A stretch of DNA of 64,000 nucleotides from Botrytis cinerea B05.10 (taxonomy: Eukaryota; Ascomycota; Leotiomycetes; Helotiales; Sclerotiniaceae). The notes under the pieces were generated by a model. The model ran no database searches and had not been told where the DNA came from. It saw nothing but the letters and a program-made list of their open reading frames with translations. Below are positions 31,347 to 56,551 of this stretch, in pieces (the first letter of the stretch is position 1; the number at the start of each line of letters is the position of its first letter). The translations under genes and the position numbers were made by a program. The stretch lies in assembly GCF_000143535.2 (NCBI RefSeq), contig NC_037312.1, positions 620,001 to 684,000 of the forward strand. Direction: 5' to 3'.

Positions 31347-32678
31347 CTAGTTGATAGACTGCGGAAAATGGGATTGCACCAGCGCATTTGCAACAGGCGT
31401 CAACGTAGTGAAAGGCTCTTTATCATGTAGTTGGAGGGAGTACAGCTTAATGAGAGACAGGCAGTGGATAACATGAAACAAATAAAAGTCATGAAGATTC
31501 GCTTTTCCGATTTCGATCGCGTTCGCAAGGAATTCAACACAATGGCTCTGATGTTGCCCGGCGTAGGCATACCCAAATCCGACCTCGTTTCCGTTTTCGG
31601 CCAACCCAGGTAACGCCATCGTCGGCTTGAAGCCCAGCTCGGCTGCGGACCGAATTTCCCGACCGGTTTCCATGAGGTAGTAGTTTAGGATACTAACGCG
31701 GTCAGCATCGCCATCCGCATCATCATAACGTCGTTTGATGGCCGCGGGAATGTTCCAGCGGTCTACCGTATCGTTCTTGGGGTGTATTGTGAACTGGAAG
31801 AAGGCCTTACCCTTCTCTGCGGAAACTTTCAAGTGCTCTTTTCGCATGTTTCCGAAAACCTCACGTTTCAATTGCTCTTGACGTGCCGCAACAGCGTCAG
31901 CAGCGTCTCTCTTGTCTAGGCCTGCAGAATCAGCGGCAGAGCTCTCTTTGTACCTGCTCAAGTTAGTCTTGATTCTTCGTCAGTCTCGTAATATTTCTTA
32001 CCACGGAGCGGCCTCAGCTCTCTCGCTCAAACCAGCATCATCAGCGGCAGAGCTCTCTTTGTACCTACTCAAGTTAGTCTTAATCCTTTATAAATCTAAT
32101 AGTATTTCTTACCATGGAGCGGCCTCAGCTCTCTCGCTCAAACCAGCATCATCAGCGGCAGAGCTCTCTTTGTACCTACTCAAGTTAGTCTTAATCCTTT
32201 ATAAATCTAATAGTATTTCTTACCATGGAGCGGCCTCAGCTCTCTTAGCTAGGCCAGCATCATCCGCAGCAGCACTTTCCTTGTACCACGGAGCGGCCTC
32301 AGCTCTTTTAGCTAGGCCAGCATCATCTGCAGCAGCACTCTCCTTGTACCATGGAGCGGCCTCAGCTCTCTTAGCTAGGCCGGCATCATCCGCAGCAGCA
32401 CTCTCCTTGTACCTGCTCAAGTTAGTCTTGATTCTTCGTCAGTCTCGTAATATTTCTTACCACGGAGCGGCCTCAGCTCTTTTAGCTAGGCCGGCATCAT
32501 CCGCAGCAGCACTCTCCTTGTACCATGGAGCGGCCTCAGCTCTCTTATCTAGTCCCGTAATATTGGTTATTAAAGGGAGAATTGAAGGTAGAGTAAGTAA
32601 CTTACCACCGTGTGGAAGTGGGGCAGCATAAGCCGATGCTGCTACGAGAGCCACAAGGGCAAGAGTAGAACGAACCAT
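31347..32678 (-). CDS. RiPP precursor: seven Kex2-type repeats plus C-terminal HxxHC domain
   Basis: Six exons: 32678-32606, 32548-32461, 32412-32224, 32175-32113, 32064-32002 and 31953-31347, giving 360 aa. Residues 1-19 form a secretory signal (VRSTLALVALVAASAYA). After PLPHGDKR come seven 21-residue units (28-174), consensus AEAAPWYKES(A/S)AADDAGLAKR; the Lys-Arg ends are Kex2 sites, as in UstA-type dikaritin precursors. Units 5 and 6 end in SER instead of KR. The four introns within the repeats are each 48 nt, in phase 2 inside the Trp codon of units 2, 5, 6 and 7. The same frame continues into 186 further residues with two HxxHC motifs, HQSHC (293-297) and HVIHC (319-323), as in UstYa (DUF3328) oxidases. 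No membrane helix is seen in that domain. An alpha-pheromone precursor is unlikely: the repeats have no Cys. The mature product is unknown. Function is inferred from architecture and neighbours. Confidence 0.82.
32002..32556 (-). repeat. Tandem coding repeats, seven 63-bp units with or without 48-bp introns
   Basis: The repeat array of the precursor gene. Units 1, 3 and 4 are intronless 63-bp units; units 2, 5, 6 and 7 contain a 48-bp intron at the same site. Two intron variants exist: type a (in units 2 and 7) and type b (identical in units 5 and 6), differing at about a dozen bases. Confidence 0.9.
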
Positions 32679-34071: not shown

Positions 34072-34794
34072 ATGGATCTCTTGCGAAGAAACACGAGCAG
34101 GAAGCAGCATGGAGCTACTAGGGAAGTCCGAATTCGTCGTTTTTTGGTCCCGTCAATCTTAGTTATCCTCTTGCTCATCATATTCGTCCTTCTCCTCAAC
34201 CCTCGTCCTCAGCCCTTCTCGCTAAGGTCATCCTCTGCCCATGGCCCTCTCCCGTCCCTCCCTCGCTTCTTCCAGAACTATCCTACTCTCGAATCCTATG
34301 GTCCTATTGCCGATTCCCACTGGGAGACTCTTCTTCTTTCTCCCAATGGTGGCTTCATAAAGGTCCAGCGCAACGAAACCTTTGTTGAGAGCTGGGGCAT
34401 AAGCATGTTTCACGCCCTTCACTGCCTTCGCATGCTTAGAGACGCACTTGCACCCACTCCGTCTGAGCACTCTGAGCACTCTCACCATTTTCGCCCAACT
34501 CACCTGACTCACTGCTTCACCTACTTGGCGCAATCTCTACTCTGCGCTGCTGACGACACTATCGAGGCTCCTGTTCCCGAATATAACCTTCATGATGAAA
34601 TTACAGGCTTCCGTGTGGACGGAATCGGGGTGCAGCACAAGCAGTGTAGGGACCCAGCACTGCTCTACGCTGTGGCTAGCAAGACAGAGCAGAGCCCTTT
34701 GACTCGTGATTGGCCCGGACTGCAGGGAGCAAAGGAGTTGATATGGGATTCAAGCGTATGGGAAAATGGCAAGTGTGTTGGAGACATATTTTGA
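34072..34794 (+). CDS. UstYa-like (DUF3328) oxidase, membrane-anchored
   Basis: Single-exon gene of 240 aa. A basic N-terminus precedes one hydrophobic helix (about residues 24-42, FLVPSILVILLLIIFVLLL), so the protein is a type II membrane protein with its domain in the secretory lumen. The two defining motifs of the UstYa/DUF3328 family are intact: HALHC (114-118, followed by LRMLRDAL) and HLTHC (144-148, followed by FTYLAQSLLCAADDT). Proteins of this family carry out oxidative cyclisation or hydroxylation of RiPP precursor peptides such as ustiloxin, asperipin and phomopsin. It is divergently oriented from the repeat-containing precursor 1.4 kb away, the expected pairing for a dikaritin cluster. 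An alternative upstream frame (33824-34162) overlaps but lacks family features. Most likely functional. Confidence 0.85.
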   Translation: MDLLRRNTSRKQHGATREVRIRRFLVPSILVILLLIIFVLLLNPRPQPFSLRSSSAHGPLPSLPRFFQNYPTLESYGPIADSHWETLLLSPNGGFIKVQRNETFVESWGISMFHALHCLRMLRDALAPTPSEHSEHSHHFRPTHLTHCFTYLAQSLLCAADDTIEAPVPEYNLHDEITGFRVDGIGVQHKQCRDPALLYAVASKTEQSPLTRDWPGLQGAKELIWDSSVWENGKCVGDIF

Positions 34795-36734: not shown

Positions 36735-37580
36735 CTAATCCTCCTTCACGACAACAATGTCTGTGTTCAAACTCACCCTGCTCCCAGTCGCAATACTATC
36801 CAGCGCATCTCTTTTCAAAAAAATCATCTCACAGTGTGCGATATATCCATCTGTATCAAATCGATGTTCGATCTGCTTTGCCGCACCCTCCATGGCGTGG
36901 ACCATCCGATACATCTTTCGCCAATAATAGCTGCAATGCAAGACATGCCAGCGGTGAGTGGTGAAAAAGTAGTCTTGAGAGTCGTTCGCCGGTAGCAGAG
37001 CTATCTCCTCCGTCGAGATACTGGTACGGCCGAATTCGTCGGCGTAATAAGTCCAGGCGCCGTCCGCACCAGGCCCAGTAGCATCAAATTGCGCTGCCAG
37101 CACCTCGTCGCGGCAATGCGGTGGTAGCCAAGCAGCTGCAATTGTATCGTAGCGGCAGGATCGAGCCATGGCTTCGAGCAGAGAAGATCCACAAGAGCAA
37201 GAGGATAGGTCCTCAACTGGCATTCCCAAAGCCACTCGCATCCGGCCACCCAAGGGTTTCAAAAGGTGATAGAGACCATTGAAGGCGAGACCGATGGTCA
37301 GGATATACAGTGATAACACCCCAATGCGTCTCAGTGACTTTAAGCATGCTGCTTTGCGATAATTTCGCCCTTGAGGGGGGCTAGGCTTGGAGCGCGAAGA
37401 TAGCTTTGGCTCCGTGATAGGGGGAGCATGATCGAAGCTCTCTCTGCCGGCAAGGAGCGATCTGCTAATGTCCTCCTCTTCATCACGAGTCTTGCGTTCT
37501 TTGAATGGAGAGGAAGAAAATGAGAAAGGCAGAGCTCCAGAAGGCATTATGATAAAATTCTGGTCGTCGACTTCTGTCAT
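36735..37580 (-). CDS. UstYa-related membrane protein with HVLHC motif
   Basis: Single-exon gene of 281 aa. A long acidic/basic cytosolic N-terminus (about 85 residues, several Arg/Lys) precedes a hydrophobic helix (about 88-107, VLSLYILTIGLAFNGLYHLL). The lumenal part has CSCGSSLLEAMARSCRYDTI, then AAAWLPPHCRDEVLAAQFD, TYYADEFGR, a HVLHC motif at 212-216 (HRWHVLHCSYYWRKMYR) and a second, partial motif GYIAHC (245-250). This resembles a fungal family distantly related to UstYa, in which the first HxxHC is kept and the second is YIAHC. The CRYDT..LPPHC segment is shared by that family as I remember it. Position between two UstYa-like genes suggests a role in maturing the same peptide; reaction unknown. 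Confidence 0.65.
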   Translation of the reverse strand: MTEVDDQNFIIMPSGALPFSFSSSPFKERKTRDEEEDISRSLLAGRESFDHAPPITEPKLSSRSKPSPPQGRNYRKAACLKSLRRIGVLSLYILTIGLAFNGLYHLLKPLGGRMRVALGMPVEDLSSCSCGSSLLEAMARSCRYDTIAAAWLPPHCRDEVLAAQFDATGPGADGAWTYYADEFGRTSISTEEIALLPANDSQDYFFTTHRWHVLHCSYYWRKMYRMVHAMEGAAKQIEHRFDTDGYIAHCEMIFLKRDALDSIATGSRVSLNTDIVVVKED

Positions 37581-38623
37581 GAAACTGCTCGTAGAGATGT
37601 TTTGCAGGCAAGGACGAACAGAATGATTGCGTGAAAAGTATAGAACGTGTGAAGAAAGACAGAGTCTAGAGAGGGAAAGAGGTCATGTTGCTATCTGGTC
37701 AGATTTGCTTTGAGAATCTCTCGAGATGAGAGAGAGAGACTCCTTGTCCCTCGGTTCTTCTGAAAAGCCTCTCGGAACACTCGAATAGGACATTGTGGGT
37801 TCCTGGCACTTCATGCGGCACCATGTTTTTCCGAGAGCCATGGCCAAGCATTTCGGTACGTTACGTTGTTGTCTTGTTTCCGGATCGCCGATTTGTATCT
37901 ATAGAGGCGTGTGGATCGCGAGAGGGTTATCGTTATTCTCACTTGTACATTGGTACTCGACGAAAAAAAGGTTAAATTTCTTTGAGTATATTCTACGAGC
38001 AGCGGTGTTTTTGTCAAATCAGATTCCAGAGATTGAACAATACTGTTTTTCTATTGGTAGTTTGCGAATAGGTGGGGGGTGCTTGTAATAAACTTTATTA
38101 CGCCGGCGACGAAGTAATATCAATATCCCGGATCAGAATAATGGCAACCTGGGATTCGTATGTCACGTCATGAGCGCTAACACGTAGTTCTATCGGATAA
38201 ACCGTTCAGAGTTGAGTTAAGCTTTTGACGGGCAAGTCGAGCAAGAAGAAGAAGGGTGGGGGCGCCTTGGCGATGCTGATCATTGCGACACTCCATTGCA
38301 CCTGCATGTGGCCAATCAGTGTTTATTTGATTCGGAAAATAGTAGAATCTCATACGAGAATAAACCCACTTTCGAAACTCGGGAGAAAGCTCTTACGAAG
38401 AGAGGGTGATGGCCGACATCGACAAGATGACTGTATATTGTCAGATTGATACAGTGTGCAGCCTTCCCCAGTTCTCCTGTACGAAATTGATATCCTCAAA
38501 TCTTCACTTTTTCTCACTGCCGCCTGCCATTGTTATTTCTACTTTGTCTCTCAGGCTAGCAAGCACAGAAACAAACACAACTACATACAGAGAAGCACCC
38601 GCTCAAACACACAGAAATTGTCC
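37581..38623. promoter_or_regulatory. Divergent spacer between two UstYa-related genes
   Basis: 1.04 kb between the minus-strand gene at 37580 and the plus-strand gene at 38624; it must hold both promoters. No gene is supported. Confidence 0.55.
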
Positions 38624-39752
38624 ATGGATAAAGAAAGAGATCAGATATATGAGCCTCTTTCTCATGATGATAGCCATTCCTCTGGCTCCGCAGATGTGGA
38701 TGAAAATCAGTCTCATAACTCTCTTCTTTTTCTTCGTCGACGTAGCCAGCGGTCACTCCAATGGCTGCCAAGGTTCATTCGACTAATTGAGATCTTTATT
38801 GTGATGGGTTCCCTTGCCTTTGGATTTTACGGCTTCATCTGGTTTGACAAGTCATCTTCGGACCAAACTTGCCCCATAGAACCATTTTTCAGACCTGGTA
38901 CGTGCCTGTTTATGATTTTGAACAAAGACTTGAGATTAATGTGTCATTCTAGAGTGGGATCATATCAAAGACAGTGGTTTGACCTGGACTGCGCATCTCA
39001 CTGGGCCCGAATCAGGCGTTTTTATGGGGGAACCATCAATGGAACGTGAAGCTGCATGGGAAAATCTATTGAAAGGTTGGTCAATTCTATTGAAAGGAGA
39101 TCTTTCTTTTTACCACTTCCATGGCAACTGATGGACGCTATATAGACCGTGGCGTTACATTGAGTGCAGCGGAACTGGACGTTTTGAATACGAAGGGAGA
39201 AATACCTAGCCTGGCAGGTGAAACGACTGGTTCTGGCACATACATTGGGTATCAATTGATGTCAGGCATGGACTATCAGTTGCATTGCCTGGTAAGTGGA
39301 TTTAATATAGCCGCTTTTAATCTAGCAGTCATTCTACTGCGACAGAAAAATATTTTCCTTGTGGCCGAAAGTCCATAATACTCACAAGAGAGTAAATTCG
39401 TAAACCACAATGCTAATATCATTTACAGAGTCTTATCCGACAATGGAGTTACTGGGATCACTATCAGACGGCAATGACTGAGCTTCCAGAGGTTTTCATG
39501 AGCGCTCCCGAGGACGCTCATGCGCTAGTCGGTATGTCTTCACATTCCTACACATCGTTCGATTTTTCCGAGGTACAAGAATTCTAACTCGGAGTGGTAG
39601 ATTTTTGCCTAGAATCCCTCAGGTTGCAGGTTCTTTGCTCATCTAACCAGATGCGATTTCTCGTGCCTAATGCCACCTCGATCACCGGATATAGGGGTCC
39701 AATTGTGCTGCAGAAGGAGGAAGCACGGTGGCAATGTGCACGAAATATGTGA
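38624..39752 (+). CDS. UstYa-like protein with degenerate HxxHC motifs
   Basis: Five exons: 38624-38897, 38953-39075, 39146-39291, 39429-39531 and 39601-39752 (265 aa, TGA stop; all introns GT-AG). N-terminal cytosolic tail rich in Ser/Asp/His, then one helix (IEIFIVMGSLAFGFYGFIW), so membrane-anchored. The domain follows the UstYa pattern: an EWDHIKDSGL / WENLL segment, GVTLSAAELDVLN, GYQLMSGMDYQLHCLSLIRQ, then LVDFCLESLRLQVLCSS. In UstYa the motifs are HxxHC; here they are YQLHC (first His replaced by Tyr) and LVDFC (both His lost; Cys218 kept). The flanking LIRQWSYWDHY and LESLRLQVLC match the family closely. It may be a catalytically altered partner of the other homologues, like UstYb-type pairs, or a decaying copy; the frame is intact. 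Confidence 0.72.
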
Positions 39753-41723: not shown

Positions 41724-43923
41724 ATGTTACCATTAAGTGATTCAGAAGAGATTGATATGACCTCGAGACCAGGCCAGGGAAGGCAAGAGCGAGCTTCAAA
41801 AGCCTGTGAAGAATGCAGGAGACGGAAACTGCGCTGCGATGGTCGAGAACCACAGTGTGGCGTTTGTCGTGATGCTGGTGCAACGTGTGAATTCAATGCT
41901 GGTCGTGCCCTTCGGGGACCCAAAAAGGGTTACTTCAAGGAGTTGAAGGATAGAATTGGTTGGTACATGATCTTTTAATCCTTTGTCATGCTCAAATCCT
42001 GAAGGCTCCGTTTTGGGGCGTGACTAACAATGTGATCTGTTGTAGTAACATTGGAGCGTCAGCTTTCTTTACAGCAACAAACCATCGAAGGATACGGCCT
42101 ACCTAATTCTATTTTAGATCACCAAGAAGGACCAGCGTTTTCTGGAGTTGTCAGCCCAAAGTCAACGTCAGAAAGTGAACAGCAGCGAGCTGGATCGACT
42201 CTCGAAGACTTTAGCGTATCCACTTCCGTCCCAGATCACCTAGAAGGACCTGCGTTTTCTGGGGTTGTCAGCCCAAAGTCAACGTCAGAAAGTGAACAGC
42301 AGCGAGCTGGATCGACTCTCGAAGACTTTAGCGTATCCACTTCCGTCCCAGATCGCCTAGAAGGACCAGCGTTTTCTGGAGTTGTCAGCCCATGTTCGTT
42401 GACCGTAGGAAGTGAGCATTGTATAGGGCAAAGAAAATCCATGTCAAATTCATTGAATGGCATAAGCTCAGTACTCAAACTATCAGTAAATACCAACAAC
42501 ACCATCCCTGTATGGATGCACGACGAATTGTAGGTCGCTGGTTTTAAGAAGCCATAGAGGAAGAAAGATGAATACTAAAGAATGTCCAGAGACCAACTAT
42601 ACTTTGATCGAGTGCACAAATTCATACCTCTACTTCATCAGCGCCAGTACTTGTCCTGGTCTAGAAAAAAGACTGAGAAGACATCACGTCTTTGCTTGCA
42701 GAGTGCGATGTGGACACTGGCTACTTCTGTCTCAGTCCAGTTTCAGCATCTACAAAAACAACTCTTTCGAGACACGAAGTTAATGCTAGAGTCTTTGAGT
42801 ACCGCCAATGAAGATCACTCAACCACCGATACCGAACATGTACAGACATTGGTCTTAGTCGCAATCTATGAGTCAATGAGAGCTCCCAAGCAGCAGGCAT
42901 GGATCACCGCTGGGCAAGCATTTCGTCTGGTGCAGTTGATGAAATTCCATGAGATCGATTGCCCGAGCGTATATGCCACTACTAGACCTACAAAGTCTTT
43001 CCTGGAGACCGAGGAACAACGCCGAGTCTTCTGGATGTCTTACTTCCTTGACACTCTCCTCACGATGCTGAATTGTTTGCCTTTGACAATGAATGAACAT
43101 GTGGTATGGAATCCCATCTTTTTCGATTGAGATAACATGAAGAGTATGAGTTGCTGATTAATTTTACATTCTATATAGGTCTTTATACGTCTTCCAGCGC
43201 CTGAGGAGGAATTTCAGTGCAGCCAGAACGTGCTAGGGAAATTTCTTTCCGAAGCGATAGTTGAGCAAAGCCCACAGACACAATCAAGCTTTATTCAATG
43301 CGTGATCTTTGCAAGTATATGTGGGCGGAGCTTGTTCTATGGCCAGCAGTTCAACCTTTCCATGTTTTACGGAGGCGCGCCCTTAGACTACTCAATCCAG
43401 TTTCAGTGGCTGGACGACATGGTGACAACTAGGCTCCAGATTCTGTCACAGTACAATCCGAGCCCAACCGAAACGCATGACCCCATGCTCTTGTTCACAA
43501 GAATAATTGGCCAGACAGCCGTTATGGCTCTGTGCAAGGGGATGGAATTAAAGTTGGCTGCTGACTCCGATGGAGGGGCATCTGTGGTGGCATACCAGTT
43601 GCGAGCACTGACTGCAGCAGCCCAGATCGTCAAACTCGCAAAAGCGCTGACCGAGTTTCCTATTTTCAAGGCGAGCCTCGGTCATTTCTTTTACAGTACA
43701 AGGTTACTAATATCTGTCTAAGATCCATCCACTGATGCCGGTCATACTCGGCTTTTGCACTGGGCATATCTACGAGCATCGATTATACCACGAGTCCTTC
43801 AATTCCCACCTCCAAGAACTTTTAGACGTTCTTCGCAAATTGAAGAACGTCAGCAACCCAAGTCAGAGCTATGTAGACTTGTTGGAGCTGTCGGAGATCG
43901 TTGGGACACAGGCTCTATCTTAG
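41724..43923 (+). CDS. Zn2Cys6 transcription factor (cluster regulator)
   Basis: Five exons: 41724-41958, 42046-42529, 42581-43103, 43179-43670 and 43723-43923 (644 aa). The first domain is a binuclear zinc cluster ([12 protein letters not shown], then [11 protein letters not shown]). A short coiled-coil-like helix ([10 protein letters not shown]) follows, then a hinge with a 39-residue tandem repeat (117 bp, 2.3 copies). From about residue 240 there is a Fungal_trans middle-homology domain ([19 protein letters not shown] and the region ending in [12 protein letters not shown]). The last intron appears to use a GC donor (AAG|GCGAGC, 43671-43722), the only choice that keeps frame into [23 protein letters not shown] 41757 is an alternative start. 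Beside the PKS genes this is the likely pathway activator, comparable to CtnR/CitR; family membership alone does not prove that. Confidence 0.85.
42117..42391 (+). repeat. 117-bp coding tandem repeat, 2.3 copies
   Basis: Units start at GATCACC 42117, GATCACC 42234 and GATCGCC 42351; near-identical, length a multiple of three, inside the regulator's hinge. Near identity points to recent duplication. Confidence 0.93.
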
Positions 43924-45166: not shown

Positions 45167-46901
45167 GTTGCTTCAAACAGCAATGTCAATAGATGAGAAA
45201 CTTCTGAAAACGAGAGATTCTGGATTGTAAAAAATTGTGAAGCCGTTATGAGGGGCTTATCTGGCGTCAGACACCTGCAGACATACCTTCTGCTATAGTT
45301 TAAGAACCAGTGCGCCTGATTAGATATTCCTTTGCGTTTGGATCTCAGAATGCAAATCCTCCCAAAATAGTCTGCGTGGTATGCTGCGGTAAAAAGAAAG
45401 GCTCTTGGCATATTGGACGGAATATCCCTCGGGAAAACTATGCTACAAATCGCTATTTTAATAGATATTGATATGATATTAAGCGGGAATGTTCTTCGGA
45501 ATACCCATCCAGGTTAAAACTGGGTTGCCAAAGCCAAATAACTCCCGTAAAACCTCTGTATGGTGGGTGATAAACCATTTTATGTAGAGTTGTAATGCTT
45601 TAAGCCATAAAAACAATAAGGGTTGAGGATTATTTATTTAAGTAATACATAATAAACTAATTAAATAGCAATAAGTTAATGAAGCAGTAAGAAAAAAGTA
45701 AATGGTAAACAAGTTTTCTAATTCTAATTCTAATTCTAATTCTAATTCTAATTCTAATTCTAATTCTAATTCTAATTCTAATTCTAATTCTAATTCTAAT
45801 TCTAATTCTAATTCTAATTCTAATTCTAATTCTAATTCTAATTCTAATTCTAATTCTAATTCTAATTCTAATTCTAATTCTAATTCTAATTCTAATTCTA
45901 ATTCTAATTCTAATTCTAATTCTAATTCTAATTCTAATCCTAATAATGATAATAATAATAATAATGAGAGAGAAAAACAAATTATAGTCGAACGAAGTGA
46001 AGAACTGGGGTTTGAGGGTCGGCCCCCATGAATAATAACTTATTAAATTAATATATAATTGAATATGAGAAGTTTCATTAATGATATAAAGACTTAAAAA
46101 ATTATATACTTAAAAGGTAAACTGCTTCTAGGCAGTAGAAGAATTTGAAGGAAAAAAGAAAAAACTTAAAAAGAATTTCATTCGATTCCACTGCCACTTA
46201 TAATCATTTAAATGCACGGACCTGGCGTCGAACGATAGGGTACTAGGGGATAGATAGGTATAATAATAATGGGAAAAGGCACGTAATTATAAATTTACAA
46301 TGAAATTTGTCAAAAAAATAAATAAAAACGGCATTTCCTTCTATTAACAAAGATTTTCTTATCGGAAAGTCAAATTCACCTAAATTGTATATGCTTTTTG
46401 CTTCCGGTATATTATTTTTCTCTCTTTTGCAATACTATGATAGGTCCGAATCGAAGAGTTCGTAGGAATGCCATTGAAAAAAGGTATCATTACGTTGCAT
46501 CAATATTTCAAAAGTCAGGTATTTCTTATCTGCAGGGTTCTTACGTGAAGGTGTTACTGTAAACGGAATTTCATTCGGAACGCCTGGGTGGCAATTGGCC
46601 AAGTCAATGGCTACCGTAAAGATAGATAGGTTGCTGACTTCAGTGCCATCTTCCAATGACCTTCAGCATATGTGCTACCTTATCGTCGTTGAATATGCAC
46701 GGCATTTCGCAGATTTTTTCTTAATGGTCATGTAGGTAGTAGCAACCAACTTTGTACATCTGTTGCACTATACTATGATTAGACTTTCGGACCGATATCT
46801 CGGGGATTGTTAAATACTAAGCTAGTCGAGACAAAGTTCAAAAGGAACTATGTGAATCTAATCTTCTGATTACTACAACATCCCCATCATTGCACTCCAT
46901 T
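45167..46901. promoter_or_regulatory. Divergent spacer between oxygenase and hydrolase, AT-rich with hexamer repeat
   Basis: 1.7 kb between the minus-strand oxygenase and the plus-strand hydrolase, so it contains both promoters. It includes a 222-bp (TTCTAA)37 tract and an AT-rich block (about 46.03-46.42 kb). The minus-strand frame 46435-46656 (73 codons, natural-looking ending) has no support beyond being open. Confidence 0.55.
45716..45937 (+). repeat. (TTCTAA)37 hexanucleotide array
   Basis: 37 uninterrupted copies. On the plus strand one frame reads (Asn-Ser)n, and on the minus strand one reads (Ile-Arg)n, which makes long but meaningless open frames. Not a telomere repeat. Confidence 0.95.
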
Positions 46902-47717: not shown

Positions 47718-48267
47718 ATAGAGCTGGGTGTACTTTGCAGGAATTGATTATGCTAGATAAGGAATCAGCAAGCTTTCATGGCTCAATCTGTAGTGCGTTG
47801 CGCATTAGTTCCCTGATGTGAAATAGCTGCTGAGAGATACGATTTACAATCCTTCCCAAATTACGGATAACCAAAATGGGAGGTTGGGAGAGCGCCCACT
47901 GAGATCACGGATAAACTAAAACTGGCTGCGGAAAATCGTTCATTCCTCCGCTCGTGAAATCCCCTGCTACCAGTTACCCAGGTAGCACCAGCACAATGAT
48001 TTTCAGTCCATCAGAAAGCCACCAACAGTCAGTCTCCTATTCTATGACAAAGGAAATTCCGAAGTCAAGGTGGCGGCACAAAAGCTTGCACTACGGGCGA
48101 AATGAATGGCCCGTCATCGCATTACCTCATAAGAACTTCCCATACATCACGGCCGTTGAAGTAAGTTAAGTGAGTCTACGAATTGTATCTCTAACTGCAC
48201 GTTGTCGACGAATTTCAACAATCATTCCCTCTGTGTTAGTCACGTGATCCATCCGAATCGGCCAACA
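47718..48267. promoter_or_regulatory. Spacer/promoter between hydrolase and PKS
   Basis: The 550-bp spacer presumably contains the PKS promoter. A CACGTGA site lies at about 48241-48247, just upstream of the start codon. No gene. Confidence 0.45.
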
Positions 48268-51200
48268 ATGACCACCATGATCGATCCTCGGTCAGGGCTT
48301 GGAGCTGACCCTGTGCTTTTGTTATTCGGGCCTCAAGCATTGAAATTCGATGCCGAGTCTTTCAAAAAACTTTGTATTCGGGAGAGGCCCCATTATCAAT
48401 GGGTTTTGGAGACAGTAACTGCGCTCTCCTCTGAATGGAACGATATCTCCAAGGCCAACCCCAGTTTGCAACATTACAATGGCATGGAAAAGCTAGAGCA
48501 ATTGAAGGCATGGGTATCCAGAGGCGAAATCTCGAAACATCACTCTTCCTTTCCCTTGCCGAACATCCTTCTCTCCCCCTTGGTTGTCATCACGCAATTG
48601 ATTCAATATTGGGACTTCCTAATCGTTGCTTTGCCAGACTTGAAGGATGCCGATGAGCTACTTACGTCAATCACGACAAATGCGGAAACGCTGGGCCTAT
48701 GTACTGGCATGCTGAGCGCCTTTGCCGTGGCTTGCTCTTCGAGCATCAAGGAGCTCCAACAGTATGGCGCGGTGGCTGTGAGGCTGGCAATGCTTACAGG
48801 CGCCTTTGTAGATGCAAAAGAGGAATTAGTTGGACTTGGAGAGGCTGCAGTATCATTCTCGCTGTCTTTGAACCCCACGGATTCAGGCATTGCCTTGAAA
48901 GAAGCGTTGCGCCAATTTCCCGAAGTAATTGATCTCCAAGCTGCAGAATTTCTGCTATTTGAGCGATAAGCTGACAGATATGATAGGCCTATATTTCTCT
49001 TCTGACTGATGAGAAACGGATGACAATAACTACCTCGGAACAAACAGCTTCAAGTCTTATCCCGCAGTTAAAACTGGCTGGTATTCAAGCTACAAAACTG
49101 GTACTTCGCGGAAGATTTCATTGGGCAAAACACCAAGAAGATATTGAATCTCTCATTCAGAGCTGTACCCCGAAATTTCAGTTGCCTGATGCTTCAAAGA
49201 TGGCACTTCCTAGCCGGTCCAATACCGGTGGGAAGTACCTTATGGCCGGCAAGCTCCATGAGATAGCGTTACGATCAATCCTTGTGGAACAGTCTCAATG
49301 GTATAAGACATTCAGCGTTGCTTATTCGTCTCACTTGCTCTCAAGTAATGCTTCCTGCATCTGTTTTGGAACAGAGAGCTGCGTACCTCCCACGATTGCG
49401 CGACAACTTGGCTCCCGGTTAATCCAAGTCGGAGGCATTGACTTATCGACCTCGCAGCTACCTGGAGAGCTTCTGGGTACGCACCGGACGAATGCTTTTG
49501 CAAATATACCAGACGAGCGGGTTGCGGTGGTTGGCATGGCATGTCAACTACCAGGTGCAGAAGATCTTGAAGAGTACTGGAAGATTTTGAGCAGTGGAAA
49601 ATCTCAACATACAGAGATTCCACAAGAACGATTTAGCATGGAAACAGCCTGGAGGGAAGCCGATTCAGAACGTAAGTGGTTCGGCAACTTTGTCGAGAAT
49701 TACAATACATTCGACCACAAATTTTTCAAGAAGAGCCCCCGCGAGATGGCATCCACAGATCCTCAACATCGCTTAATGTTGCAGATTGCCTACCAGACAG
49801 TCGAGCAATCTGGATACTTTGGAAGCCTTAATGCTGATAAGCATATTGGATGCTTTCTAGGAGTCGGCAATGTTGATTATGAAGCAAATGTCGCTTGCTA
49901 TCCTGCCACTGCGTATTCCGCCACAGGCAATTTGAAGAGTTTTGTGGCAGGCAAAATCAGCCATTATTTCGGCTGGACTGGCCCAAGTTTGACAATTGAT
50001 ACAGCTTGCTCTTCATCTAGCGTATCAATTCACTATGCATGCCGCTCTATTCTTAGTGGCGAATGTAACTCTGCACTTGCGGGGGGTATCAACATTATCA
50101 CAAGCCCCAATTGGTATCACAACCTATCTGGAGCATCTTTCTTAAGCCCCACCGGACAATGCAAGCCATTTGATGCCAAAGGCGATGGATATTGCAGAGG
50201 CGAAGGTGTCGGCGCTGTCTTGCTCAAGAAGCTTTCCTCTGCCGTTGCTGATGGCGACCAGGTGCTTGGGGTAATTTCCAGCACTGGAGTTTATCAGAAT
50301 GGGAACGATACTGCAATCACAGTTCCCATTTCGGATTCGTTATCTGATCTTTTCTTACATGTTCTACATAAAGCCAAGCTTGAGCCTAAGGATATCTCAG
50401 TCGTCGAGGCTCATGGTACTGGGACGCCAGTTGGTGACCCGGCAGAATATAAGGGTATCCAAAGAGTCTTTGGTGGGCCTGACAGTTCTCACAAGGTCTC
50501 CTTGACTTCTGTAAAAGGCCTCATCGGTCATACTGAGTGTGCCTCCGGTGTCGCATCATTGCTCAAAGTAATCCTCATGGTTCAAGAAGGGTTTATCCCT
50601 CCACAAGCAAGTTTCACTTCAGTAAATCCCAATCTCGGCCTTACTCCAGATGACAAAATTGAGATCTCGGCACAACTCAAGCCATGGGAAGTTGAATTCC
50701 GAGCCGCTCTGATCAACAACTACGTAAGCCACACCGTCTCTTCTTGTTTTGTCAACCACTCACACGCATATACTTTTCCTGCTTTCTCTCGACGCAAGTG
50801 CGTTTCCATAGAGACAAAGTCCACTCGCTTCCTTCTCAAACATTATAAACCAGGGAATTCTAACTTAGCGTTGTCGTAGGGCGCTTCTGGCTCGAATGCC
50901 TCCATGGTCGTCACTCAAGCGCCCAAGCTTATATCTCAGATTCCTTCCAAGCTACCATCAAACAGAACTTACCCATTCTGGTTTTGTGGAAACGATGAGC
51001 ATAGCCTTCGAGCATATATCACAAAGCTACTCGGTTTCTTGAGAAGTCAAGGCACGCCAGGGAAGGATTTGAGCACAAGCAACTTGTCTTTTCAGGTCTC
51101 TCGCCAATCCAATCGTTCACTTGACTGGGCTTTGATATTCAATTGCAACTCTTCCTCTGAATTACAGGATAAGCTTGCGGCTCACCTGAAAGGCGAGAAG

Positions 51201-54200
51201 AGCATCACGGCCATCCGGACGCCGTCCACCAGGCCGGTCATTCTCTGCTTCGGCGGTCAGGTTTCGACCTATGTTGGTTTAAATCAAGAGATCTATGACA
51301 CTATTCCACTGCTGAGAAGATATTTGGACCAGTGCGACGCCATATTTATCTCTATGGACCTGGGCAGTATTTACCCTGATATCTTCCAAAAGTCACCTGT
51401 CCAAGACATCGTGAAGCTTCACAGTATCCTTTTCGCCCTCCAATATTCCACTGCAAAATGCTGGATAGACTGTGGAGTAAGTGAAATTAGCTTTCTTATT
51501 TTGGACCACTAATGTCAAACCCTCTCGCGGCGGGCAGAATAAGTGGCACAATGCACCACAATCTTCATTACATCCTGAATATTTAAGTCGCTTTGAATGT
51601 TGAATTTTTGGGAGTGTGCCACTTTCTCTATCCAAAAAAGCCCTCCAAATACATCTACTCTTACTGCACACTCTAGATGGTAGTGCTTTGTGGTGCCTTC
51701 CTAAAGAGCTAGATATTCACTAATTTTCTCATGAACAATTCCATACTCCCAAAATAGGCATTTACTAACTTCCCGGTGTTGTAGATCAAAGTAGCCGCGG
51801 CCATTGGCCACAGTTTTGGGGAGTTGACTGCTTTGTGTGTCTCGAACGCGCTACCCCTAAAGCATGCGATCGAAATGATTACCGGTAGAGCACACCTCAT
51901 TCAACAAAAATGGACTGCCGAAAGAGGATGTATGATGGCTGTTGAGGCAGATGCTGCCAATGTAAATGCCTTGTTGGCTAAGTCTAAGAATGTCGCAATC
52001 GCTTGTTACAATGGCCCCAGGAGCTTTACCTTGGCCGGTACAGGGAAAGCCATTGATTCGCTCGAAGAAATGGCCAAATCCGACCCTACATTTTCTGGCG
52101 TTAAGCTGAAGAAGCTCAATGTTACCAACGCTTTCCATTGTCACCTTGTCGATCCTCTGATGGAAGATCTGGAAAAATTTGGCATGAAACTAGTGTTTAG
52201 AGAACCTGATTTTCCACTTGAAACAGCGACCGAATACGAGTTTACTGATAAACGTGATGAGAAATTTGTAGCTCGTCACCTGCGGAGTCCTGTCTTCTTT
52301 CATCATGCCGTTCAGAGAATAGCCAAAAAACATCCGGATGCCACTTGGCTGGAAGCTGGTTCCAACTCGACTGTAACAACCATGGCAAGTCGCGCTCTTG
52401 GATCATCAGGGGCAAGCTCGTCTCATTTTCAACCAATCAACATTACAAGCGACAACTCCTTCAATTTCCTCGCTGAAGCGACTTCGAGGCTATGGAAGGA
52501 AGGCCTACGTGTCCTTTTCTGGGCACATCATCCTGTCCAGGCATCCTCATACACACCGGTCATACTGCCTCCTTATCAATTTGAGAAATCAAAACACTGG
52601 ATGGATCTGAAGAAAGCACCAAAACTGGAACCTCTGGTCGTAAAAACTCAGACGAAAGAGCTGCCAAAGGGTCTCACGACCTTTGTAGGATACCAAGATG
52701 AGGCGAACCACTCGGCTCTCTTTCAAGTCAACACCAAGACTGAAAGATTTGCTCGACTTGTTTCGGGCCACGTTATGGCTAGTGTAGCCGCTGTGTGCCC
52801 TGGCATATTCCAAATGGAACTAGCTTTGGATGCTTTGATGAGTCTTCGACCTGAGTTTGCAAATTTGAGCTTCCGGCCAGAGCTACAACGCATGCAGCAC
52901 TACCATCCACTCGTGCCTGATGATTCAAAGCTTGTATGGATTGAAGCTATATCCCAGGACCCCCAACATCTCGTCTGGGACTGGAAAATTGTCGCCACCA
53001 AGAAGATAGGTTCTGCTTCGACGCAGCATACTTCGGGGGCATTTGCGTTTCGGCCGGCCAACGATACTCAACTCCAAGCCGAACTGGAAGGATATGAACG
53101 CTGGGTCAGCAGGAAGCGGTGTATACGTCTTCTGGAACGCCGTGATGCTGATGACGTCCTCCAAGGCCGTAATATCTACCGAGGATTCTCGCAAATCATC
53201 GACTACAAGGAACTTTACCGCCATGTGAACATCATTGTTGGCAAAGACGACGAATCAGCAGGCCGTGTTACCAAGACTCACATTGCAGAACCCTGGCTTG
53301 ACTCCATCCTGACCGACTGTTTTTGCCAAGTTGCAGGTATTTTTGTGAATCTCATGACAGACAGATCTGATATGACCGAGGGAGGCATTTTTGTTTGCGA
53401 TGGGATTGGCCGCTGGTTTCGCTCTCCCAAGATGGGCCCAGATACGCAACTGGACCATTGGGAAGTCTTTGCTCTGCATCATCCTGAATCAGAGAAAAAG
53501 TATATCAGCGATGTGTTCGTGTTCGACCCCCGCGATGGTTCCTTGGTCGAAGTGATATTGCGAATAAGCTACCAATGGGTCGCCGTGGACGGAATTCGCA
53601 AAGCGTTGTCGGCGCCTGCCCCATCTGGACATCACCTCCCCACAGTCACTCCCGCCCCATCCCAGACCTCTACACCCGCACCAACTTTGGCGCCGGCGTT
53701 GGTTAATGGATGGAAACCACAAGAGAAGAAGAAGAAGAAGGAGAAGAAAGTGGCCGTCAAGCAGCAAAGGCCAGACGTCATTGGCAAGACCCGTGAGATT
53801 ATATGTAATCTTTCGGGATTGGAGCCTGACGAAGTCAAGGACAACTCTGATCTGATTGAGCTTGGAATCGATTCTCTTATGAGCATGGAACTCACGCGAG
53901 AGGTTAATGCTGCATTCCAATGTTTACTAGACACTGCGCAGCTTATGGATTTGACTGACTTTCAAAGTCTCGTCATATGCATCCAGACGATGCTGGGCCT
54001 TGATTCTCAAGAATTGGGCAACATATCAGAGGCGCACGATACGGCAAGTGGAGAGTCGGGAGAAGAGACTGCAACGAATGGGACAATGAATAGAAAGATT
54101 AATGGAGTGAACAGCGTTGTGAAAGGCTCCGCGCTCTCTGCATCGATAGTCTTGGATGCCTTCCAGAAAGCATCAAAAGCCACAGATGAATTCATCGTCA

Positions 54201-56551
54201 ATGGACATTTGGGAACCTACTATAACGAGATCATGCCCAAATCGACCGAGCTCTGTGTTATCTATATCCTGGATGCCTTCGAAGTCCTTGGAGTGAATAT
54301 ACGGGCTACCGCACCAGGTCATAAGATCGAGCGTGTTCCATATCTCCCTAAACACCAGCAGCTTATGAACTTAATATATGATCTACTCTGTAAGGATGCT
54401 CGTTTGATTGATATCAATGGCTCTGAGATCATACGGACAGCTGTTGCGCCCCCAACCAAGTCGGCAGATGCGTTATTAGGAGAGTTGCTTCGCAACGCAC
54501 CGGTTCATGCCGCCGAACACAAACTCACAAAATTGACGGGAGAAAGATTTGCTGATTGCATCACCGGCAAAGCCGATGGGCTTCAATTGATCTTCGGGAC
54601 TCCCGAAGGACGAGAGATTGCAACTGATCTGTACGCCAAATCTCCAATTAACGGAATCTGGATCCAACAAGCCGAGTACTTCCTCGAAACTCTTGTGGCT
54701 GGGCTGCCGAAGGATGGAGAACCTCTTTGTATTCTAGAGATGGGGGCTGGAACTGGAGGAACAACAATTAAAATGGTCCAACTGTTAGCACGCTTGGGTA
54801 TCCCTGTCAAATATACCATAACCGATCTTTCTTCATCCCTGGTTGTGGCAGCTCGCAAGAGATTCAAACAATACAAGTTCCTAGAATTTAAGGTCCTCGA
54901 TATCGAAGCTGCACCCGATTCGAGTCTATTGCACAGCCAGCACATCGTACTTGCCACCAACTGTGTTCACGCGACTCGCAATTTGACAATATCGACGACG
55001 AACATACACAAGATTTTGCGACCAGACGGGTTTCTTCTGTTAATAGAGATGACGGAGCAAGTGCCTTGGGTCGATTTCATATTTGGTTTATTGGAGGGCT
55101 GGTGGTTATTTAATGATGGTCGGCAGCATGCTTTGCAACCCCCCACGTACTGGGAGAAGATATTGTCATCAGTTGGCTTTGGTCATATTGATTGGACTCG
55201 AGGGAACCGGCCTGAAGCGAATATTCAGCGCCTGATCATTGCTTTAGCCGATGGATCCAGGTATGATCCTGTGCCAAAGCCACATCCTCCAACTGCGCAG
55301 ATGGTGTTAACAAAGAATACAGTTCGTCAAACGGCCATTGATGTATATGCCTACGAATATTCGAAAGAATTCTTCTTTGAGCCTCGAAACTTGATCTCGT
55401 ATCCTGTTCATCCGTCCAACGAGAAGTATTGCGTCCTTGTCACTGGTACCACTGGAAGCTTAGGCTCTCATATCGTAGCGTACTTCGCACAGCTACCTGA
55501 AGTGGAGACAGTGGTTTGTCTCAATCGATTGAGCATGGTAGATGCCACTCTCCGCCAGCAGCAATCTTTTGCTCTGAGAGGCATCTCACTCGATAAAATT
55601 TCAATGTCCAAGTTGAGAGTTATTGAGACAGATACTGCTAAATCGATGCTGGGGTTGCCGAAGAGTACATTCCAATATCTTACAGATAATGTTACGCATA
55701 TCGTCCACAATGCTTGGCCCATGAGCCTTACACGTACAGTCAGTGCTTATGAGTCCCAATTCAAGGTGATGCGGAATCTTATTGCACTATCGAGTGAAGC
55801 CACAAGTCAGCGTCCCGCACCTTTCAAACTCGGCTTCCAGTTCATCTCATCAATCGGTGTTATCGGATACTACCCTCTCTGGACCGGCAAAGTACTTGCT
55901 CCTGAAGAGTCTATGCCAGTTGACTCAGTTTTACCGGTAGGGTATGCTGACGCAAAATTGGTCTGCGAACGAATGCTAGACGAGACATTGCATCGCTACC
56001 CAGAACACTTCCGACCCATGGCTGTGCGGATTGCGCAGATTGCAGGCTCGACGATCAACGGATATTGGAATCCAGTGGAACACTTTGCATCTTTCTTGAA
56101 GTCTTCCCAAACGCTCAATATTCTTCCAGATTTGAAGGGTACTCTATCATGGTGTACTGTTCAAGATGTCGCTGCCACACTAGGCGAACTTCTCATTTCT
56201 AATACTCCGCCATACCCGATCTACCACATCGAAAATCCTTCGAGACAACCTTGGCCAGATATGATTATGGTGCTAGCCAATGAGCTTGGTATTCCCAGCA
56301 ATAACATCGTCCCGTTCGATGAATGGTTGAGCCGAGTACGTCGTTTCCCTGGCTCTACCAACGACAACCCCGCAGGACAACTGGTTGAGTTCTTCGATAA
56401 ACATTTCGTTCGAATGTCATGCGGTGGCCTAATATTAGATACGGTTAAGAGTCAGGAACATTCGAAGACCATCCGGAGCACAGGGCCTGTGAGCATAGAT
56501 CTTGTTAGGAAGTACATTTTATCGTGGAAGAGTTCAGGGTTTTTGAGTTGA
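48268..56551 (+). CDS. Non-reducing polyketide synthase SAT-KS-AT-PT-ACP-CMeT-R (CitS-like)
   Basis: Four exons: 48268-48924, 48987-50723, 50880-51476 and 51785-56551 (2585 aa). Start ATG 48268 has good context (caacaATGa); the frame extends upstream without an ATG. Domains: SAT (about 1-370; nucleophile motif GLCTG, His in GRFHW), KS from about 398 (Cys560 in DTACSSSS, His695, His734), AT (Ser1007 in GHSFGE), PT (His1326 in SGHVMA), a Lys-rich linker, ACP (Ser1694 in LGIDSLM), C-methyltransferase with SAM motif EMGAGTGGTT (1982-1991), and C-terminal reductase (TGTTGSLGSH, 2217-2226; YADAK later). Such an enzyme builds a C-methylated aromatic polyketide and releases it reductively as an aldehyde. 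Domain order and length (about 2.6 kaa) match the citrinin synthase CitS/PksCT. Together with the CitA- and CitB-like neighbours this predicts a citrinin-precursor-type product, but other methylated aldehydes are equally possible. Confidence 0.93.

What the first reader, a model, noticed from the sequence alone, without database searches (positions are those of the whole stretch)
31347..32678. Self-contained RiPP precursor: Kex2 repeats fused to a UstYa-type HxxHC domain
The spliced gene encodes a signal peptide, seven 21-residue KR-type units around APWYKES, and then, without a stop, a 186-residue domain with HQSHC and HVIHC motifs 26 residues apart (30 in the neighbouring UstYa-like protein). 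Known dikaritin precursors (UstA-type) and their UstYa oxidases are separate genes. A precursor that carries its own candidate oxidase domain would be a new architecture. The Trp-Tyr pair in the repeats is a plausible site for oxidative crosslinking; this last step is inference.
Basis: partly seen in the sequence, partly recalled or inferred. Interest (0 to 1): 0.92.

Follow-up and report, generated by a model that had tools for sequence, protein, structure and literature searches.

The report
Peptide precursor fused to oxidase-like domain
A gene in what is likely the grey-mould fungus Botrytis cinerea is predicted to encode one protein made of seven repeated Trp-Tyr peptide units followed by a conserved domain with the two HxxHC motifs known from fungal copper oxidases, and because relatives in other fungi share this layout, the precursor likely carries its own modifying enzyme, which would be a new arrangement for fungal peptides.

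Summary
On the minus strand (32678-31347) a gene with predicted introns encodes a hydrophobic, signal-peptide-like start, seven 21-residue APWYKES units (five ending KR, two ER) and, in the same exon as the end of the last unit, a 186-residue C-terminal part with HQSHC and HVIHC 26 residues apart. The fusion is not a local accident: of 30 database proteins with this C-terminal domain (CTD), 17 extend upstream of its linker and all 17 show WY repeats or remnants of them, in three classes of fungi. All 28 that reach both motifs keep the spacing of 26.

The reading "UstYa domain" is only partly supported. None of the 30 passes the Pfam UstYa cut-off (best 22.0 bits, window 10.9-12.2, cut-off 25), and the profile match to UstYa vanishes when the six motif H/C positions are masked. 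The CTD has no membrane anchor. It is best called a new CTD family that likely works like DUF3328 copper oxidases but is not shown to be a member.

Best mechanism: a self-modifying fungal precursor, the counterpart of plant fused burpitides. The CTD binds copper, oxidises the Trp-Tyr cores, and Kex2 frees them. All chemistry is inferred. Main rival: a docking pro-domain served by the three neighbouring UstYa-like proteins.

The parts
31347..32678 (-). whole gene, fused precursor (379 aa, or 360 aa if the optional first intron is spliced)
   Evidence: NCBI Botrytis cinerea protein P0001 has the same layout with 10 units and an identical 171-residue C-terminal domain
32622..32678 (-). signal-peptide-like N-terminus (residues 1-19), predicted by inspection
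   Evidence: hydrophobic segment, Kyte-Doolittle 1.6 over 19 residues, ending AYAA; no signal-peptide program was available
32549..32605 (-). possible 57-nt intron, optional
   Evidence: not spliced in P0001
31908..32540 (-). seven 21-residue units AEAAPWYKES(A/S)AAD(D/S)AGL(AK/SE/DK)R
32413..32460 (-). predicted intron in unit 2 (variant A)
32176..32223 (-). predicted intron in unit 5 (variant B)
32065..32112 (-). predicted intron in unit 6 (variant B)
31954..32001 (-). predicted intron in unit 7 (variant A)
31863..31907 (-). 15-residue linker DAADAVAARQEQLKR, itself ending in KR
31350..31862 (-). conserved C-terminal domain (CTD), 171 aa
   Evidence: 30 database proteins carry it, some as fragments; one match in this genome
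31539..31553 (-). first motif HQSHC
31461..31475 (-). second motif HVIHC
34072..34794 (+). U1: UstYa-family protein, 240 aa, hydrophobic helix near the N-terminus, HALHC and HLTHC intact
   Evidence: Pfam UstYa 61 bits, E 2e-16
36735..37580 (-). U2: UstYa-like open frame with HVLHC and a degenerate second motif YIAHC; called UstYa-like by eye only, no Pfam match
38624..39752 (+). U3: UstYa-family protein (splice model made by eye), motifs degenerate (YQLHC and VDFC)
   Evidence: Pfam UstYa 60.7 bits, E 2.4e-16

Best explanation
The gene is predicted to encode a self-contained peptide precursor: a signal-peptide-like start, seven WY-containing repeat units, and a conserved C-terminal domain whose two HxxHC motifs likely form a copper site that would oxidise (probably crosslink) the Trp-Tyr cores of its own polypeptide. 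Shown: the layout in the sequence, its recurrence in other fungi, the fixed spacing and conservation of the H, H, C residues of both motifs, and the neighbouring UstYa genes. Inferred: splicing, entry into the secretory pathway, two copper ions bound by the paired motifs (as measured in the DUF3328 enzyme CctR), probably in a dimer, oxidation of WYKES in cis or between two precursor copies, Kex2 cleavage afterwards at KR (also freeing the CTD), and further oxidation by U1 and its neighbours.
For: Same fusion in independent fungi: 14 of 30 CTD-bearing proteins show at least one WYx(D/E/V)S unit, 3 more show repeat remnants by eye, and the other 13 start in or after the linker; all 6 that carry an NCBI organism name show it. 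Both HxxHC motifs exactly 26 residues apart in 28 of 28 relatives that reach both. The repeat type follows the CTD tree: rows whose commonest unit is WYK or WYR lie in one 9-row clade (support 99/99), rows with WYT/S/A outside it (14 of 14 rows with a readable unit, of 24 in the tree), so repeats and CTD descend together. HxxHC(x)nHxxHC is the experimentally supported binuclear copper site of the DUF3328 protein CctR, and alanine mutants there are inactive (PMC12435403, whole main text as held). Two structure models place each motif on its own helix (104-108 in H101-118, 130-134 in H128-144 in the window CTD; same pattern in P0010), as described for CctR. U1 lies 1.4 kb away, divergently transcribed.
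Against: No CTD protein passes the UstYa Pfam cut-off: 0 of 30 relatives and not the window. With the H/C positions masked, the hhalign score falls from 36.4 to 13.9, no better than shuffles (median 11.4, maximum 22.5 of 194). The structure models are weak (pLDDT 61, pTM 0.48 and 0.45), the motif helices themselves about 45-63. The CTD lacks a membrane helix and has no cysteines beyond the two motif ones, unlike CctR's dimer cysteines. Genuine UstYa proteins nearby could do the chemistry instead. Two of seven units lack KR. No transcript, protein or product data.
Confidence: 0.45

Rival explanations
1. The CTD is a non-catalytic pro-domain (a metal-binding docking or folding module) that presents the repeats to the neighbouring UstYa-like proteins U1-U3, which do the oxidation in trans.
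For: U1 is an intact UstYa protein next door, with two more UstYa-like genes within about 7 kb. UstYa, UstYb and UstQ are together needed for the first ustiloxin intermediate (PMC6514808, passages). The CTD has no membrane anchor. Motif residues in U2 and U3 are degenerate, so partner subunits are plausible.
Against: Conservation of all six H/C residues in 28 of 28 relatives is more than docking needs, although a structural metal site would also keep them. Whether relatives have UstYa neighbours could not be checked.
Confidence: 0.33
2. The HxxHC pair is convergent: the CTD is an unrelated metal-binding domain and the WY peptides are secreted linear, unmodified peptides (signal or defence peptides).
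For: Similarity to UstYa rests on the motif residues alone in the profile comparison, and no member reaches the Pfam cut-off.
Against: The motif pair is very rare by chance (1 of 500,000 shuffles). UstYa matches 20 of 25 members while no other Pfam model matches more than 2, and its match spans about 60-70 residues in the better ones (P0018 model positions 99-170, 22.0 bits). A UstYa gene adjoins.
Confidence: 0.17
3. The C-terminal part is a separate gene or the join is a gene-model artefact.
For: Four predicted introns are needed for the full array, and no transcript data were available.
Against: The end of the last unit and the CTD share one open frame. The same join appears in P0002, P0003, P0012, P0017-P0019 and others. 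None of the 17 relatives that extend upstream shows the CTD behind another kind of N-terminus.
Confidence: 0.03

Closest known systems
Fused (autocatalytic) burpitide pathway of plants, BURP-domain copper cyclases (PMC12186524, passages; PMC11253845, passages)
   Same: precursor cores and a copper-site domain on one polypeptide; multicore precursors; four conserved histidines at the copper site (PMC12435403)
   Different: the CTD is not a BURP domain (no Pfam match); fungal; the motif is HxxHC(x)21HxxHC; catalysis not shown here
Dikaritin pathways (UstA/UstYa, PhomA, AprA/AprY) and Kex2-processed repeat proteins (PMC7329392, passages and part 1 of section 6; PMC6514808, passages)
   Same: signal-peptide-like start, repeated Tyr-containing cores, KR sites, adjoining UstYa gene
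   Different: in the cases described there precursor and oxidase are separate genes; here an oxidase-like domain sits in the precursor
DUF3328/UstYa copper enzymes (CctR, PMC12435403, whole main text as held)
   Same: HxxHC(x)nHxxHC, each motif on a helix in the predicted models
   Different: below the family cut-off, no membrane helix, no extra cysteines for a disulfide dimer, fixed short spacing, fused to repeats
Borosins (omphalotin, precursor fused to its methyltransferase; PMC6514808, passages)
   Same: fungal precursor carrying its own modifying enzyme
   Different: different chemistry and enzyme; core at the C-terminus there, repeats at the N-terminus here

Membership tests
UstYa / DUF3328 (PF11807) | two HxxHC motifs | tested here: met
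   HQSHC and HVIHC; 28 of 28 relatives that reach both
UstYa / DUF3328 (PF11807) | match above the curated Pfam cut-off (25 bits) | tested here: not met
   window 10.9-12.2 bits; 0 of 30 relatives, best 22.0
UstYa / DUF3328 (PF11807) | sequence similarity beyond the motif residues | tested here: not met
   hhalign 36.4 (32.9 in the other direction), falling to 13.9 with six H/C positions masked
UstYa / DUF3328 (PF11807) | N-terminal transmembrane helix with lumenal catalytic domain | tested here: not met
   highest hydropathy after residue 45 is 1.2, against 3.3 and 3.5 in two U1 relatives; a signal-peptide-like start could give the same lumenal location
UstYa / DUF3328 (PF11807) | same fold (helical domain, four-helix coiled coil in the dimer) | tested here: inconclusive
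   motif helices predicted, but low-confidence models and no solved UstYa-like chain to compare with
UstYa / DUF3328 (PF11807) | copper- and oxygen-dependent activity | not testable with these tools
   needs protein
Kex2-processed repeat protein / dikaritin precursor | repeated cores separated by dibasic sites | tested here: met
   7 units, 5 ending KR, 2 ending ER
Kex2-processed repeat protein / dikaritin precursor | signal peptide | tested here: inconclusive
   hydrophobic start by hydropathy only
Kex2-processed repeat protein / dikaritin precursor | UstYa gene nearby | tested here: met
   U1 at 34072-34794, 61 bits
Kex2-processed repeat protein / dikaritin precursor | Tyr-ether crosslinked product | not testable with these tools
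   needs mass spectrometry
Burpitide fused cyclase | BURP domain | tested here: not met
   no BURP match listed in the Pfam scans of the CTD and its 30 relatives
Borosin | fused SAM-dependent alpha-N-methyltransferase | tested here: not met
   no methyltransferase match listed

The most novel reading that the evidence does not exclude
This is the first fungal 'fused' copper peptide cyclase family: a RiPP class in which a secreted precursor carries a diverged HxxHC binuclear-copper domain that crosslinks its own multiple Trp-Tyr cores, a fungal counterpart reached independently of plant fused burpitides.
Probability: 0.4. Interest if true: 0.9.

Novelty: new variant of a known kind. Interest (0 to 1): 0.76.

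Why it matters
If the CTD is catalytic, fungi have a one-gene system for making crosslinked peptides that would be easy to mine and engineer. A search for UstYa Pfam hits would not flag the domain itself (0 of 30 relatives reach the cut-off), and one earlier survey of repeat precursors set aside the C-terminal fragment after the last dibasic site from its initial analysis (PMC6339444, passages), so such domains could have been passed over. It would also be a membrane-free relative or mimic of DUF3328 enzymes, which are hard to purify (CctR was made in insect cells with detergent, PMC12435403), and would allow direct comparison with plant BURP cyclases. Even if the CTD is only a docking domain, it is a conserved module of fungal RiPP precursors that I did not find described in the papers I saw (searches under Tried and rejected).

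Tried and rejected

Other Pfam matches: one passes its own cut-off, DUF3737 in P0001 (24.7 bits, cut-off 23.9), but at residues 220-246, inside the repeat array; Pico_P1A in P0013 (19.7, cut-off 21) and DUF7462 in P0003 (21, cut-off 27) also lie in repeats. A few weak ones fall in the CTD, each in one or two members and below cut-off (RE_Eco47II in P0011 and P0014, CV_2116-like in P0005, HTH_HVO_0163_N in P0021; DUF7652 in P0002). I set these aside.

Literature: ten searches of the open PMC library, nine on this question and one on gene identifiers. I saw titles, starts of abstracts and the passages cited; none described a UstYa/DUF3328-type domain in a precursor. The words 'fused' and 'fusion' do not occur in the held main texts of PMC7329392, PMC12048977, PMC7099791 or PMC9233826. 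Passages of PMC6941272 concern Sclerotinia DUF3328 clusters and do not mention such a fusion. Subscription papers and supplements were not searched, so this is not proof of absence. Chiang et al. 2025 (ApnU, AprY) was not held and is known to me only through PMC12435403.

Full report
WHAT IS THERE. The window lies in an unnamed 42.6-Mb, 18-contig genome. The closest database protein is P0001, a Botrytis cinerea hypothetical protein (ACHAPC_011025, 442 aa) whose last 171 residues are identical to the window's domain, so the window is likely B. cinerea. The gene runs on the minus strand from ATG 32678 to stop 31347. Removing four predicted 48-nt introns gives 379 residues (360 if an optional 57-nt intron near the start is also removed): a hydrophobic start, seven 21-residue units, a 15-residue linker and a 171-residue C-terminal domain, here called CTD. 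The unit is AEAAPWYKES(A/S)AAD(D/S)AGL followed by AKR (4 units), SER (2) or DKR (1). The end of the last unit and the CTD share one open frame.

IS IT MORE THAN CHANCE. Three overlapping Tandem Repeats Finder rows on the array score 351, 562 and 688. Two HxxHC motifs arose in 1 of 500,000 composition-preserving shuffles of the CTD. More telling is conservation. Two protein searches gave 31 proteins (P0001-P0031), of which 30 carry the CTD or a piece of it. P0004 has only repeats, ending at APW where the intron's stop would fall, which suggests the same intron position in a relative. Of the 30, 14 show at least one WYx(D/E/V)S unit (P0001, 2, 3, 7, 12, 13, 15, 17-23) and 3 show repeat remnants by eye (P0014, P0016, P0028); the remaining 13 begin in or after the linker and cannot speak to it. 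So 17 of 17 informative proteins have repeats. The six with NCBI organism names (Botrytis cinerea, Nemania bipapillata, Cladosporium sp., Xylaria scruposa, Biscogniauxia marginata, Xylaria bambusicola) all show WY units; Botrytis is Leotiomycetes, Nemania Sordariomycetes and Cladosporium Dothideomycetes (the class of Xylaria and Biscogniauxia is recalled). Counted WYx(D/E/V)S units run from 1 to 10, some of these proteins being incomplete. On a CTD tree of 24 rows, those whose commonest unit is WYK or WYR all fall in one nine-row clade (99/99) and those with WYT, WYS or WYA all fall outside it, 14 of 14 rows with a readable unit: cores and CTD have been inherited together.

WHAT THE CTD IS. 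In 28 of 28 relatives that reach both motifs, two HxxHC motifs stand exactly 26 residues apart (P0023 ends inside the second motif and P0028 before the first). The window CTD has just two cysteines, those of the motifs. Pfam's UstYa model matches 20 of 25 proteins scanned together at E up to 10 and 5 of the other 6, but never above its 25-bit cut-off: window 10.9-12.2 bits, best 22.0 in P0018 and 21.4 in P0031. No other model matches more than 2 of the 25; one, DUF3737, passes its cut-off in P0001, inside the repeats. A profile comparison of 24 CTDs with 13 UstYa-type sequences (nine from this genome, U1 among them, plus four U1 relatives) gave hhalign score 36.4 (probability 64%, P 6e-5) and 32.9 (42%) in the other direction; without U1 and its relatives 32.9; the reversed profile gave 13.4; 194 column shuffles had median 11.4 and maximum 22.5 (6 of 200 failed). 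U1 and its relatives against the other UstYa sequences, a positive control, gave 148.6. With the six H/C positions masked the CTD score dropped to 13.9. So the likeness to UstYa consists, as far as this test sees, of the motif pair; common descent is possible, not shown. The CTD has no membrane helix (hydropathy maximum 1.2 after residue 45, against 3.3 and 3.5 in two U1 relatives). Two AlphaFold2 models, of the window CTD and of P0010, are weak (pLDDT 61; pTM 0.48 and 0.45; motif helices about 45-63) but agree in placing each motif on its own helix. The CTD has no second copy found here, while the genome gives 44 UstYa matches counted by exon, and no relative was confirmed in prokaryotic genomes.

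SURROUNDINGS. Divergent from the gene, 1.4 kb away, is U1 (34072-34794, plus strand), a clear UstYa protein with both motifs intact (61 bits). U3 (38624-39752, plus strand; splice model by eye) is also UstYa (60.7 bits), but its motifs read YQLHC and VDFC. U2 (37580-36735, minus strand) has HVLHC and YIAHC and no Pfam match, so its kinship is by eye. Further right are a fungal transcription-factor domain, a 2OG-Fe(II) oxygenase and an FSH1 hydrolase, and a polyketide synthase judged by eye from its open frames. The setting resembles a fungal RiPP cluster.

HOW IT LIKELY WORKS. CctR, a DUF3328 hydroxylase, binds two copper ions per monomer, needs oxygen and electrons, works as a dimer, and loses all activity when the conserved H or C residues of HxxHC(x)nHxxHC are changed to alanine; its authors note the likeness to BURP domains (PMC12435403, main text). 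In plants, BURP copper cyclases exist in a fused form, one polypeptide with its cores, and a split form (PMC12186524, passages). By analogy I propose: the precursor enters the secretory pathway (inferred); the CTD binds copper through its paired motifs (inferred); it oxidises the WYKES cores on its own chain or on a partner copy (inferred); Kex2 then cuts at KR, releasing cores and, through the linker's LKR, the CTD (inferred); U1 and possibly U2 and U3 act in addition (inferred). The main rival is that the CTD is a docking or folding module and U1 does the chemistry. I give these 0.45 and 0.33.

MEMBERSHIP. It is not filed as a UstYa/DUF3328 member: the cut-off, similarity beyond the motif, and the membrane helix were tested and not met. 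It likely works like that family, and may be a diverged branch of it. It meets the repeat and gene-neighbour features of a Kex2-processed dikaritin-type precursor but not the separation of precursor and oxidase. It is neither a BURP nor a borosin protein by Pfam.

NOVELTY. Fused precursor-enzyme RiPPs are known (borosins, fused burpitides), so the kind is known; the combination (fungal Kex2 repeats, Trp-Tyr cores, HxxHC domain on the same chain) was not described in what I saw of the open literature (nine searches on the question, listed under Tried and rejected), with subscription papers and supplements unseen. Hence new variant of a known kind, interest 0.76.

Noticed in passing
31954-32460: Four of seven repeat units carry a predicted 48-nt intron at the same codon position, in two sequence variants (A in units 2 and 7, B in units 5 and 6), while three units lack it: repeat duplication seems to have copied introns. 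Unspliced, each gives ...APW then a stop, so intron retention would yield repeats without the C-terminal domain.
   Followed up: partly
31908-32540: Unit number differs within the species: 7 here, 10 in the Botrytis cinerea protein P0001, which also has ASWYKES variants.
   Followed up: partly
36735-39752: Two UstYa-like neighbours have degenerate HxxHC motifs (U2 second motif YIAHC; U3 YQLHC and VDFC), suggesting non-catalytic or partner subunits.
   Followed up: partly
48160-56551: Large open frames that look like a polyketide synthase with methyltransferase and reductase-type C-terminal parts (by eye), with a 2OG-Fe(II) oxygenase and an FSH1 hydrolase upstream: probably a separate, adjoining cluster.
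   Followed up: no
42116-42392: 117-bp tandem repeat (2.4 copies, 96% matches) in the open frame just upstream of the fungal transcription-factor domain.
   Followed up: no
45716-45944: (TTCTAA)n microsatellite of 38 copies at 99% matches.
   Followed up: no
31882-32631: 249-codon open frame on the opposite strand across the repeats; taken as a mechanical mirror of the repeat coding, not as a gene.
   Followed up: no
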